Below are positions 39,410 to 41,709 of a stretch of 64,000 nucleotides of DNA, piece by piece (the first letter of the stretch is position 1; each line of letters opens with the position of its first letter). Both the position numbers and the translations under genes were made by a program. Below the pieces are notes generated by a model that was given only the letters and a program-made list of their open reading frames with translations, was not told where the DNA came from and searched no databases. Source of the DNA: Billgrantia sulfidoxydans (GTDB lineage Bacteria > Pseudomonadota > Gammaproteobacteria > Pseudomonadales > Halomonadaceae); NCBI RefSeq assembly GCF_017868775.1, contig NZ_CP053381.1, forward strand, positions 4,278,001 to 4,342,000. Reading direction: 5' to 3'.

Positions 39410-40327
39410 ATGCAAGGCGTCGCCGATGCGCTGGGGCCCCTGTTTCTGCTGATTCTGCTCGGCGCCGCGCTGGGCCGGCTGCGCCAGCCGAACGGAGAAT
39501 TCTGGGCTCAGCTCGAAAAGGTGATCTATTTCCTGCTGTTCCCCGCCATGCTGGTCGCCACCCTGGCGACCGCCGACGTGGGCGAAGTTCCCGTGGTCCG
39601 GCTGGCCACCGCCCTGCTCGGCGGGCTGGTCGCGTTCGCCGTCCTGCTGTGGGCCGTGCAAGGGCGGCTGAGCCTCGAGCCGGCGGCCTTCACGTCGGTG
39701 TTCCAGGGCGCGCTGCGCTTCAACACCTACGTCGGCGTGGCCGGCGCCGCGGCCCTGCACGGTTCCGCCGGTGCCACGGTGGCGGCGGTCGCCGTGGCGC
39801 TGATGGTGCCGGTGGTCAACGTGCTGTGCGTGGCCAGCTTCATCGCCGCCGGTACCCTCGGCCCCTCGAGCCTGGGCAAGAGCCTGGCGGCACTGGTGCG
39901 CAACCCCCTGATCCTCGCCTGCCTGGCCGGCATCGGCCTCAATCTCTCCGGCATCGGCCTGCCCGGCTGGAGCGCCTCCGCCGTGGAGCTGCTGGGCCGC
40001 GCCGCCCTGCCGCTGGGGCTGGTCGCGGTGGGTGTTGCCCTGCGCCCCCAGGCGCTGCTGCGGGTGGATCGCGGCGTGTGGACTGCCAACCTGGTCAAGC
40101 TGCTGTTGATGCCGGCGCTGGTGCTGGCCGTGGCGCTGCTGCTGGGGCTGGATGCCGTGAGTCGCGACGTGGCGCTGCTGTTCGCCGCCCTGCCCACCGC
40201 CACGTCGGCCTATATCCTGGCGCGCCAGCTGGGTGGCGATGCCGAGCTGATGGCCGCCCTGATCACCGGCCAGACGCTGCTGGCCATGGCGACGCTACCC
40301 CTGTGGCTGCATCTCGCCGGAAGCTGA
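39410..40327 (+). CDS. AEC (auxin efflux carrier) family transporter
   Basis: 305-residue permease with about ten helices in the bile/arsenite/AEC fold. It shows the family-like half repeats with KVIYFLLFPAMLVATL near residue 42, GALRFNTYVGVAGA near 105 and the C-terminal PTATSAYILARQLGGD near 263. Bacterial AEC proteins carry small organic acids; the substrate here is unknown. The gene ends 23 bp before a Fur-type promoter. Confidence 0.88.
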   Translation: MQGVADALGPLFLLILLGAALGRLRQPNGEFWAQLEKVIYFLLFPAMLVATLATADVGEVPVVRLATALLGGLVAFAVLLWAVQGRLSLEPAAFTSVFQGALRFNTYVGVAGAAALHGSAGATVAAVAVALMVPVVNVLCVASFIAAGTLGPSSLGKSLAALVRNPLILACLAGIGLNLSGIGLPGWSASAVELLGRAALPLGLVAVGVALRPQALLRVDRGVWTANLVKLLLMPALVLAVALLLGLDAVSRDVALLFAALPTATSAYILARQLGGDAELMAALITGQTLLAMATLPLWLHLAGS

Positions 40328-40350
40328 AATAAAAAACATTCGCATTCGTG

Positions 40351-40379
40351 TTGACGGCGATAATGAGAATGGCTTACAT
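40351..40379 (+). promoter_or_regulatory. Sigma-70 promoter overlapped by a Fur-like box
   Basis: TTGACG (40351-40356) and TTACAT (40374-40379) are separated by 17 bp. Between and over them lies GATAATGAGAATGGCTTAC (40359-40377), matching the 19-bp Fur consensus at 13 positions, with the first two hexamers matching at 11 of 12. Just upstream, CATTCGCATTCG (40337-40348) looks like a further inverted hexamer pair, so the operator may be extended. No coding region follows; the predicted start at about 40386 opens a structured RNA. Confidence 0.7.
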
Positions 40380-40385
40380 TGAAGG

Positions 40386-40502
40386 CGTGGTGTTGATGAG
40401 GCACCACGGCCATTAGGGGAACCGCCAGTTTCCCGCTATGGTTTCTCCCCCTCATTGCTAGTCACGGTCTTGCCTGCGCCTCCCCTGGAGGCGCTTTTTT
40501 TT
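40386..40502 (+). ncRNA. Candidate Fur-controlled small RNA, RyhB/PrrF-like in layout
   Basis: Predicted 117-nt RNA. Hairpin 1 starts at the predicted first base: CGTGGTG (40386-40392) with CACCACG (40402-40408). Hairpin 2 spans 40410-40441 (CCAT...ATGG outside, GGGAA...TTCCC inside). Then 40442-40475 is single-stranded and pyrimidine-rich and contains CUCAUUGCU, sharing CAUUGCU with the conserved core of E. coli RyhB. It ends in an intrinsic terminator (GCGCCTCC/GGAGGCGC, loop CCT, T8), a typical Hfq-binding tail. The Fur box implies synthesis under iron starvation. No homology search was possible. Confidence 0.72.
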
Positions 40503-40711
40503 GCTTGGAAGGTCCCTCATTGCTGCTTTTTACAAGGCCAGGGTCTTGCCTGCACCTCCTCTGGAGGCGCTTTTTTTTGCTTGGAAGGCCCCTCATTGCT
40601 GCTTTTTACAAGGTCAGGGTCTTGCCTGCGCCTCCCCTGGAGGCGCTTCCTTGTTCAGAAACACCCCCTCATTGCTGCTTTTTACAAGGTCAGGGCCTTG
40701 CCTGCGCCTCA
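40451..40711 (+). repeat. Tandem array of four seed-plus-terminator modules
   Basis: CTCATTGCT starts at 40451, 40516, 40592 and 40668; the last three are at exactly 76-bp spacing. Copies 2 and 3 differ at 3 of 57 positions. Copy 1, within the promoter-proximal RNA, lacks 11 bp after the seed. Terminator stems recur at 40552-40570 (one A/C mismatch, T8) and 40628-40646 (perfect stem, T tract broken to TTCCTT); copy 4 breaks off in the left arm next to the lysR stop. Only copy 1 has an obvious promoter, so later copies need readthrough or weak promoters of their own. Confidence 0.93.
40476..40502 (+). terminator. Intrinsic terminator of the Fur-box small RNA
   Basis: Perfect 8-bp stem GCGCCTCC/GGAGGCGC with a CCT loop, followed by eight T residues. 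A near copy with one stem mismatch and T8 is at 40552-40578. Confidence 0.9.
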
Positions 40712-40718
40712 CCCACCC

Positions 40719-41624
40719 TCATCCCGCTCCTGCGCCGCGCCAGGGCCCACGCCCCCGCAGGCGCTCGCGCAGCAACTCAGCCAGCGCCTGGGCGGCAGGC
40801 CGCGAGCCCGGCTCGATGGCGCGGGCGAAGTGCAGCTGCGCTTCGCAGCGCCCGAGCACGGGCAACCCTTCGGCCTCGCCCAGCTCACGCATGGCGGGGG
40901 TCAGACGCTCGCGGTCGAGCACGCTGATCGCCAGGCCCGTCTCCACCGCGCGTTCGATGGCGTGGATGCTGGTGCTGGTGAACACCGCGTGCCAGGGCCT
41001 GCCCAGCCGCTTCAGGGCTTCGGCGGCCAGCGCCCGGTAGGGACAATCGACCTCGTGCAGGGCCAGCGGCAGGCTGTCCCGCTCGGTCAGGTTGGCGATA
41101 CGTGGCGCGGCCCATACCGGCCGGGTGCGCCACAGCGGCTCGCCCCCGGGCAAGGCGATGGGGCGGTCCAGCACCACCGCCAGGTCCAGCCGCGCGCGCT
41201 CCAGCTGGCGTGCCAGCTCGCCGCTGGTGGCCGTCACCGCCTGCAGCAGCACCTCGGGGTGGCGCGCGGTGAACTCGGGCAATACGTCGCCGAGCAGCTC
41301 GCGGGCGTAATCCTCGGGCAGGCCGAAGCGCACCTTGCCCCGCAGGCCACGCCCGGCGTAGCGAGCGACAATGCCGTCGTGCATACGCAGCAGTTCGCGC
41401 GCCTCCTGCAACAGCGCCTCGCCGGTGGCGGTCGGCACGACGCCGCGCGGCCCGCGCTCCAGCAGGCGGGCATCGAGCAACGCCTCCAGGCGCTTGATCT
41501 GCATGCTGATGGCGCTGACGGTGCGGTGCCGCTGTTCGGCCGCCGCCGCCAGCGAGCCAAGCCGGGCCGCTGCCTGGAAGCTGCGCAGCAGTTCGAGATC
41601 CAGCGTCGCCGAGACTTCAACCAT
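40719..41624 (-). CDS. LysR-family transcriptional regulator
   Basis: 301 residues with an N-terminal winged helix-turn-helix (LDLELLRSFQAAARLGSLAAAAE, then SAISMQIKRLEALL near residue 36) and a C-terminal effector domain starting near 90. The Met of MVEVSATLD is chosen because the upstream in-frame extension is not typical for the family. It diverges from an EamA exporter, which is the most likely target; a palindrome lies between them. Its 3-prime end abuts the last small-RNA repeat. Confidence 0.9.
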   Translation of the reverse strand: MVEVSATLDLELLRSFQAAARLGSLAAAAEQRHRTVSAISMQIKRLEALLDARLLERGPRGVVPTATGEALLQEARELLRMHDGIVARYAGRGLRGKVRFGLPEDYARELLGDVLPEFTARHPEVLLQAVTATSGELARQLERARLDLAVVLDRPIALPGGEPLWRTRPVWAAPRIANLTERDSLPLALHEVDCPYRALAAEALKRLGRPWHAVFTSTSIHAIERAVETGLAISVLDRERLTPAMRELGEAEGLPVLGRCEAQLHFARAIEPGSRPAAQALAELLRERLRGRGPWRGAGAG

Positions 41625-41650
41625 ATTGAACCCTGCCTGCAAACAATATC

Positions 41651-41663
41651 GCTTCATTGAAGC
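41651..41663. promoter_or_regulatory. Palindrome between the LysR regulator and EamA gene
   Basis: GCTTCATTGAAGC is a perfect 6-bp inverted repeat around one base in the 85-bp divergent gap. Position and symmetry suit a LysR operator, although the T-N11-A core is not obvious. Confidence 0.4.
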
Positions 41664-41709
41664 CTCGATAGCCGTCAAGCTCAAGCTCCCGTAACCGAGG
41701 AGCACAACA

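What the first reader, a model, noticed from the sequence alone, without database searches (positions are those of the whole stretch)
40336..40502. Undescribed Fur-controlled small RNA, a probable RyhB/PrrF counterpart
A well-spaced sigma-70 promoter is overlapped by a Fur-like box (13/19, first two hexamers 11/12), yet no gene follows. The predicted start coincides with the first base of a 7-bp hairpin, a second hairpin follows, then a 34-nt pyrimidine-rich open stretch and a perfect terminator with T8. That is the layout of an Hfq-dependent regulator. The open stretch contains CUCAUUGCU, sharing CAUUGCU with the RyhB core. Halomonads need an iron-sparing RNA, and I know of none described at this locus. 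Sequence observations are direct; iron control and function are inferred.
Basis: partly seen in the sequence, partly recalled or inferred. Interest (0 to 1): 0.92.

Follow-up and report, generated by a model that had tools for sequence, protein, structure and literature searches.

The report
Halomonad PrrF iron-sparing small RNA
This stretch encodes a small regulatory RNA, a distant and apparently undescribed cousin of the Pseudomonas iron-saving RNA PrrF, found widely in salt-loving Halomonas-type bacteria and here followed by extra promoter-less copies of its own targeting and stop signals.

Summary
Window 40351-40502 holds a sigma-70 promoter, an overlapping Fur-like box, two hairpins, a core and a terminator. 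It is a divergent PrrF (Rfam RF00444: full length, 37.9 bits, E 6e-5, but below the curated cut-off of 90). A model of the RNA hits 256 of 275 genomes and 21 of 24 genera of the family. In 17 of 23 sampled genomes of other genera the exact classical core CUCAUCAAGCUAGUCACGG is present, so the RyhB-like CAUUGCU here is a secondary change, not RyhB descent. Hairpins covary. The core is complementary to the Fe-superoxide dismutase (sodB) leader in this genome and to the sdhC start codon in 24 of 24 genomes read. Hfq and a Fur-family protein are encoded. Best reading: an iron-sparing, Fur-repressed, Hfq-type sRNA of PrrF descent; the array's function is open. No transcript was seen; iron control and repression are inferred.

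The parts
39410..40327 (+). AEC-type transporter gene (Mem_trans), the usual upstream neighbour
   Evidence: Pfam PF03547 63.5 bits; upstream in 32 of 34 same-genus loci and 14 of 24 other-genus loci examined
40338..40348 (+). conserved ATTCGCATTCG element just upstream of -35; often ATTCTCGTTTG or ATTCGCATTTG in relatives, resembling an inverted Fur half-site
   Evidence: promoter listing of 40 same-genus copies; the Fur reading is inference
40351..40380 (+). sigma-70 promoter TTGACG-18-TACATT
   Evidence: TTGAC in 91 of 97 copies with enough upstream sequence, from 80 of the 119 fetched named stretches
40359..40377 (+). Fur-like box GATAATGAGAATGGCTTAC, overlapping the -10 hexamer
   Evidence: 13/19 to a recalled consensus; lies in the stretch that RF00444 aligns with the PrrF promoter region
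40386..40502 (+). predicted sRNA transcript, about 115 nt (start inferred from the -10 box and the first hairpin base)
   Evidence: RF00444 full-length match 40351-40502; R1 match in 256 of 275 family genomes
40386..40408 (+). hairpin 1, 7 bp, loop UUGAUGAGG
   Evidence: changes on both sides at 6 of 7 pairs, 93.4% of cells paired
40410..40441 (+). hairpin 2 with a CCAU/AUGG outer stem
   Evidence: changes on both sides at 6 of 10 pairs, 74.7% of cells paired with a stem that I drew on an unrefined alignment; RNAalifold's own consensus on it did not contain this stem
40442..40469 (+). PrrF-type core UUUCUCCCCCUCAUUGCUAGUCACGGUC, the presumed mRNA-pairing region
   Evidence: nearly invariant in 40 copies; complementary to sodB leader and sdhC start
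40476..40502 (+). intrinsic terminator, 8-bp stem and T8
40516..40578 (+). array unit 2: seed CUCAUUGCU at 40516-40524, altered core, terminator-like hairpin followed by a T run
40592..40646 (+). array unit 3: seed at 40592-40600, stem 40628-40646 with a degraded T run
40668..40713 (+). array unit 4: seed at 40668-40676, no terminator seen
40719..41705 (-). LysR-type regulator gene, convergent with the sRNA and its array
   Evidence: Pfam PF03466 91.3 bits, PF00126 64.5 bits

Best explanation
A Fur-repressed, Hfq-type small RNA of PrrF descent. When iron is short, Fur leaves the box and a roughly 115-nt RNA is made. Its core (UUUCUCCCCCUCAUUGCUAGUCACGG) pairs with the ribosome-binding regions of mRNAs for dispensable iron proteins: the Fe-SOD leader over its Shine-Dalgarno sequence, and sdhC across its GUG start codon. 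This blocks translation, while the Mn-SOD is mostly spared. Shown: gene anatomy, homology, conservation, covariation, complementarity. Inferred: transcription, Fur binding, Hfq binding, repression.
For: RF00444 aligns end to end with promoter, hairpins, core and terminator. In 22 of 37 same-genus genomes RF00444 reports, at E<=1, the same locus that DNA similarity finds. 19 of 20 other-genus loci match RF00444 at 39.9-73 bits and no other of 4227 families at E<=0.01. R1 hits 256 of 275 family genomes. Covariation 0.355 against 0.168 shuffled and at most 0.154 slid. In this genome 4 non-self sites match the core complement with up to 3 mismatches, and one is the sodB leader. Fe-SOD leaders score at least 24 in 14 of 23, Mn-SOD in 0 of 15, background 17 of 531. 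sdhC start 27.5 in 24 of 24, background 0 of 531; sdhC codons 2-6 have no synonymous variation in 24 of 24. Hfq (100.9 bits) and two Fur-family proteins (152.5 and 53.1 bits) are encoded. AATGAGAATNNNT occurs 3 times in the genome (reversed control 1): here, about 40 nt before the first possible start of a FecCD permease gene, and once inside an ORF.
Against: Below the RF00444 cut-off (37.9 against 90), and RF00444 also gives weak hits in 3 of 14 unrelated control genomes at E<=1; that stricter scan did not report G000 itself. The Fur box of this copy alone is not striking; 7 of 40 copies score under 12/19 at the box position, G024 has lost it and G011 lacks TTGAC. Two of the five covariation measures are reached by 23 and 34 of 500 shuffles. 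The sodB site is weak in 9 of 23 genomes. Duplex energy alone did not separate sodB from 400 background starts except in G022 (3/400), while a Mn-type SOD leader, G013, ranked 8/400. A SOD leader of the MPHSLPELAY type in G017 carries a 12-nt complement, CAATGAGGAGGA. The number of core-complement sites in the genome is at chance (4 non-self, reversed control 5). The sdhC motif is nearly present in G043 (score 24), where no PrrF was reported. No transcript evidence.
Confidence: 0.88

Rival explanations
1. An iron-responsive sRNA that only resembles PrrF, arisen independently like NrrF or BrrF.
For: Sub-threshold Rfam score; the seed differs from PrrF; an independent low-iron sRNA without similarity to known ones exists in Burkholderia (BrrF, PMC7377471, passages).
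Against: Relatives in other genera of the family carry the classical PrrF core, many beside the same AEC gene; end-to-end alignment including the promoter region.
Confidence: 0.05
2. Not an independent RNA: a terminator region or 3' untranslated region of the AEC transporter gene.
For: Promoter begins about 24 nt after the AEC stop codon; AEC is the usual neighbour.
Against: Own promoter, second copies elsewhere in G022 and G026, 10 of 24 other-genus loci without AEC found in the stretch held, which is mostly 1.5 kb either side, a nearly invariant core not explained by termination.
Confidence: 0.04
3. For the array only: the promoter-less units are neutral, decaying tandem duplicates with no function.
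For: Terminators decay in units 3-4; the number of extra units varies from 0 to 5 among 20 loci; units within a genome are near identical, as fresh duplications would be; no target enrichment seen for the altered core GCAGCAATGAG (2 non-self sites, reversed control 0).
Against: 24 of 27 units recognised by their non-seed part keep exact CTCATTGCT; two species keep the seed although the rest of the unit is gone; arrays of another kind occur in Vreelandella-type genomes.
Confidence: 0.55

Closest known systems
PrrF1/PrrF2 of Pseudomonas (Rfam RF00444)
   Same: Fur-box promoter, about 115 nt, two 5' hairpins, UCUCC..CUCAU..GCUARUCACGGU core, terminator; tandem or distal siblings in some relatives (PMC2851614 and PMC4211561, passages).
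   Different: Scores far below the family cut-off; CUCAUCAAGCUA became CUCAUUGCUA; hairpin loops differ; seed-plus-terminator array downstream.
PrrH of P. aeruginosa
   Same: Read-through of a PrrF terminator into a tandem copy gives a longer RNA (PMC2851614, PMC4211561, passages); the array here could do the same.
   Different: Here downstream units lack promoters and hairpins 1-2; read-through is not shown.
RyhB of enterobacteria
   Same: Function predicted alike; shares CAUUGCU and the sodB/sdhC targets (RyhB sequence recalled).
   Different: No match to RyhB; CAUUGCU here derives from a PrrF core.
Co-transcribed sibling sRNAs such as CcsR1-4 of Rhodobacter (recalled)
   Same: Tandem homologous sRNAs behind one promoter.
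   Different: Unrelated sequence and regulator (recalled).

Membership tests
PrrF (RF00444) | Covariance-model score at or above the curated gathering score (90 bits) | tested here: not met
   37.9 bits, E 6.1e-5, full length 1-150. So it is filed as a divergent homologue outside the curated boundary, not as a curated RF00444 member. The 27 matches in 19 of 20 sister-genus loci are below the cut-off too, 39.9-73 bits.
PrrF (RF00444) | Conserved core CUCAU..GCUARUCACGG | tested here: met
   GCUAGUCACGG intact; the upstream half is CUCAUUG instead of CUCAUCAAG or CUCAUCAGG
PrrF (RF00444) | Own promoter overlapped by a Fur box | tested here: met
   by sequence only, no binding shown
PrrF (RF00444) | Two 5' hairpins and an intrinsic terminator, about 115 nt | tested here: met
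   PrrF1/2 are 116 and 114 nt (PMC2851614 abstract passage)
PrrF (RF00444) | Induced by iron starvation through Fur | not testable with these tools
   needs RNA data
PrrF (RF00444) | Represses sodB and sdhCDAB | tested here: inconclusive
   complementarity found; repression not testable here
RyhB | Match to the Rfam RyhB model | tested here: not met
   not among the matches at E<=10 in the region
Hfq-dependent sRNA class | Hfq in the genome, U-rich 3' end | tested here: met
   Hfq 100.9 bits, T8 tail; binding not tested

The most novel reading that the evidence does not exclude
The promoter-less seed-plus-terminator array is a working read-through device. Each leaky terminator lets a fraction of polymerases add another CUCAUUGCU seed, so that a single Fur-controlled promoter makes a ladder of one- to four-seed RNAs, a modular PrrH-like multivalent sRNA. 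Halomonads evolved such arrays at least twice: seed-plus-terminator units of about 72-84 bp in Billgrantia, and nearly whole sRNA units of 136 or 183 bp in Vreelandella.
Probability: 0.25. Interest if true: 0.75.

Novelty: new variant of a known kind. Interest (0 to 1): 0.6.

Why it matters
It gives a large family of halophiles, including industrial chassis strains, a native iron-sparing RNA with two concrete predicted targets. P. aeruginosa PrrF1 has been used as an engineering scaffold in Halomonas bluephagenesis (PMC12164125, PMC13414033, PMC13101641, passages); the passages I saw mention no native relative. It shows that the RF00444 cut-off misses the halomonad copies tested, and how a PrrF seed can drift into a RyhB-like one. 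The recurrent promoter-less arrays make it directly testable whether terminator read-through is a way to build multi-seed sRNAs.

Tried and rejected
Duplex energies (ViennaRNA duplexfold) of core against 80-nt start regions did not separate Fe-SOD leaders from 400 background starts except in G022; the other low rank was a Mn-type leader, G013. I replaced them by a local complementarity score, chosen after the sodB leaders had been seen.

Loop-seed pairing: the hairpin-1 loop UUGAUGAG can pair with CUCAUUG (7 or more contiguous pairs in 32 of 40), and 24 of 40 whole-transcript folds pair loop and core. Both scripts misread the core of G030, whose fold does show the pairing. 7-13% of shuffled loops do as well, so I claim nothing from it.

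Targets of the array's altered core (GCAGCAATGAG): 2 non-self sites. Other CGTGANNAGCAA sites near starts (L296, L297, L300; 12 non-self sites in all, reversed control 3) are not distinguished from chance. One further core-complement site, L290, lies 25 nt inside an ORF and was not followed.

First sdhC scans failed because I required an ATG start; the gene starts with GTG (then 47, 48, 51).

Rows dropped: five same-genus SOD loci are missing from the 23 and 15 (L219, L222, L229, L232 gave no start; L227 had one but escaped one search's pattern), and the other-family loci L228, L230, L231, L236, L239 are left out (L239 scored 26). G002, whose sRNA was not found, is counted in both. Fe or Mn type rests on N-terminal motifs recalled from E. 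coli SodB and SodA. One search leaves out second copies (names ending in b) and the window itself. One search leaves out G031b. Searches cover 80 of 119 fetched stretches; 4 of 101 copies lie too near an edge. One search took 20 of 23 loci (not L331, L341, L342), all of them chosen because R1 matched.

Full report
What is there. The window (G000:C1:4278001-4342000, one 4.49-Mb contig) carries, about 24 nt after the stop codon of an AEC-type transporter gene, a promoter TTGACG-18-TACATT (40351-40380), the one promoter-like site in 39500-41500. A 19-base Fur-like box, GATAATGAGAATGGCTTAC (40359-40377), overlaps it with 13/19 matches. A hairpin starting at 40386, a second hairpin, a pyrimidine-rich core and a terminator with T8 ending at 40502 follow. 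It overlooked that the segment from 40461 is the first copy of a 76-bp tandem array of 3.3 units, in which CTCATTGCT returns at 40516, 40592 and 40668.

What it is. No Rfam family reaches its cut-off in the window, but a permissive scan of the locus puts PrrF (RF00444) first: full length 1-150, 37.9 bits against a cut-off of 90, E 6.1e-5, with the promoter region, hairpins, GCUAnUCACGGU core and terminator in register. DNA similarity finds the locus in 35 of 37 same-genus genomes, the window's own included; the two misses are under 90% complete. RF00444 alone picks the same locus in 22 of 37 at E<=1; G000 itself was missed by that scan's stricter filters, and 3 of 14 control genomes give weak hits too. 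A model of the transcript alone, built from 40 same-genus copies, finds it in 256 of 275 genomes and 21 of 24 genera of the family at E<=0.001. In a laxer look at 26 genomes of 23 genera, the g36 representative (G177) also carries two PrrF-type copies (63.1 and 59.2 bits to RF00444); the g34 and g45 representatives (G155, G295) showed no such core.

The family bridge. Of 23 genomes of other genera whose best R1 loci I read (L320-L342, one genus twice, the Vreelandella-type genus g44 left out), 17 hold the exact core CUCAUCAAGCUAGUCACGG and 4 more a close variant; this is essentially the PrrF core of G056, which passes the RF00444 cut-off with 127.5 bits. Of 20 of these loci, 19 match RF00444 with 39.9-73 bits and no other family at E<=0.01; L336 does not match. 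AEC lies upstream in 32 of 34 same-genus and 14 of 24 other-genus loci. So the RNA is a PrrF by descent.

Conservation of the parts. Of 97 named copies with enough upstream sequence, 91 have TTGAC, 87 a Fur-like score of at least 12/19 and 96 a terminator T run. In the 40 same-genus copies 39 reach 12/19 somewhere in the 75 nt upstream, against 5.6% of dinucleotide shuffles; at the box position itself it is 33 of 40. G024 has lost the box and G011 lacks a clear -35. Hairpins 1 and 2 covary: 82.7% of cells paired against 32.9-52.1% when slid, covariation 0.355 against at most 0.154 slid; no shuffle of 500 reaches the observed cells paired, double changes or covariation score, but 23 and 34 of 500 reach the two measures that count pairs and pair types. 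RNAalifold on the same alignment did not choose the inner stem of hairpin 2. AATGAGAATNNNT occurs 3 times in the genome: here, about 40 nt before the first possible start codon of a FecCD permease gene, and once inside an ORF. Hfq and two Fur-family proteins are encoded; which of the two is Fur proper is inferred from score.

Targets. The complement of the core with up to 3 mismatches occurs at four non-self places in the genome. One is the leader of the Fe-SOD gene (CCGTGAAAAGCAAGGAG, over the Shine-Dalgarno sequence); one lies 25 nt inside an ORF; the other two are not at a start I could see. The reversed control pattern has five sites, so the count is at chance and only the position is telling. 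With a local complementarity score, Fe-SOD leaders reach at least 24 in 14 of 23 loci and at least 27 in 8 of 23; the background has 17 of 531 and 1 of 531. Mn-SOD leaders reach 24 in 0 of 15. Against a clean split: by duplex energy a Mn-type leader (G013) ranked 8/400, and one SOD leader of the MPHSLPELAY type in G017, outside the count, carries a 12-nt complement. The sdhC start, GCCGTGAATAGCAA around a GUG codon, scores 27.5 in 24 of 24 same-genus genomes read, background 0 of 531. Codons 2-6 show no synonymous variation in the 24, while 34 of the 43 amino-acid-conserved codons among the first 60 do vary. Start regions are constrained for other reasons too, and G043 has nearly the same sdhC start (score 24) without a reported PrrF, so this is support, not proof.

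The array. Among 20 distinct loci with the UUUCUCCCCC-type core, 11 carry one to five extra seed units downstream, counting degenerate seeds. 24 of 27 units recognised by their non-seed part keep CTCATTGCT exactly, while terminators and flanks decay, and two species keep the seed alone. The listing was anchored on the seed, so seed conservation there is partly by selection of rows; one search is the less biased count. In most extra units the core is altered, with about 12 nt such as GCUUUUUACAAG after CUCAUUGCU. The 136- and 183-bp units share sequence and may have one origin. Full siblings with their own promoters also exist (G029, G033, G035, L148). The precedent for read-through is PrrH of P. 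aeruginosa (PMC2851614 and PMC4211561, passages). Whether the arrays are transcribed is unknown.

Literature. Searches for PrrF, RyhB, Fur or small RNAs with Halomonas, Halomonadaceae, Chromohalobacter, Cobetia or Salinicola showed in their listings no description of a native PrrF in this family. Several listings were cut at 15-20 papers, and the library holds openly licensed PMC papers only. Of the seven papers that hold both PrrF and Halomonas, three concern P. aeruginosa PrrF1 as an engineering scaffold in H. bluephagenesis (passages), one mentions the two separately (passages), and for the remaining three I saw the listing only.

Verdict. A real, conserved, divergent PrrF with two well-supported predicted targets and an unusual promoter-less array. 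Anatomy, homology and complementarity are shown; expression, iron control and repression are inferred. On checking, the number of independent array origins was lowered from three to two and the Fur-box count at the box position was added; neither changes the odds.

Noticed in passing
40461-40710: 76-bp tandem array of seed plus terminator-like units without promoters, downstream of the sRNA; 0 to 5 extra units among 20 related loci.
   Followed up: yes
L096, L317 (G255), L318 (G260), L319 (G214), L169: Promoter-less tandem copies of nearly the whole sRNA (136- or 183-bp units) in Vreelandella-type genomes, the last copy degenerate.
   Followed up: partly
40393-40401 and 40451-40457: Hairpin-1 loop UUGAUGAG is nearly invariant and can pair with the seed CUCAUUG; it is also the exact reverse complement of CUCAUCAA, the core of sister genera. 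Not significant in a shuffled-loop test.
   Followed up: partly
40424-40428: Hairpin-2 loop GCCAG is nearly invariant in the genus, and GCCAG or GUCAGG recurs in sister genera; reason unknown.
   Followed up: no
L352 (G000:C1:1650711-1650723): The same Fur-like core motif lies just upstream of a FecCD siderophore permease gene, about 1.4 kb from the Mn-type SOD gene.
   Followed up: partly
L074 (G024), promoter: One species has lost the Fur-like box while keeping TTGAC and the RNA: a natural test of Fur dependence.
   Followed up: no
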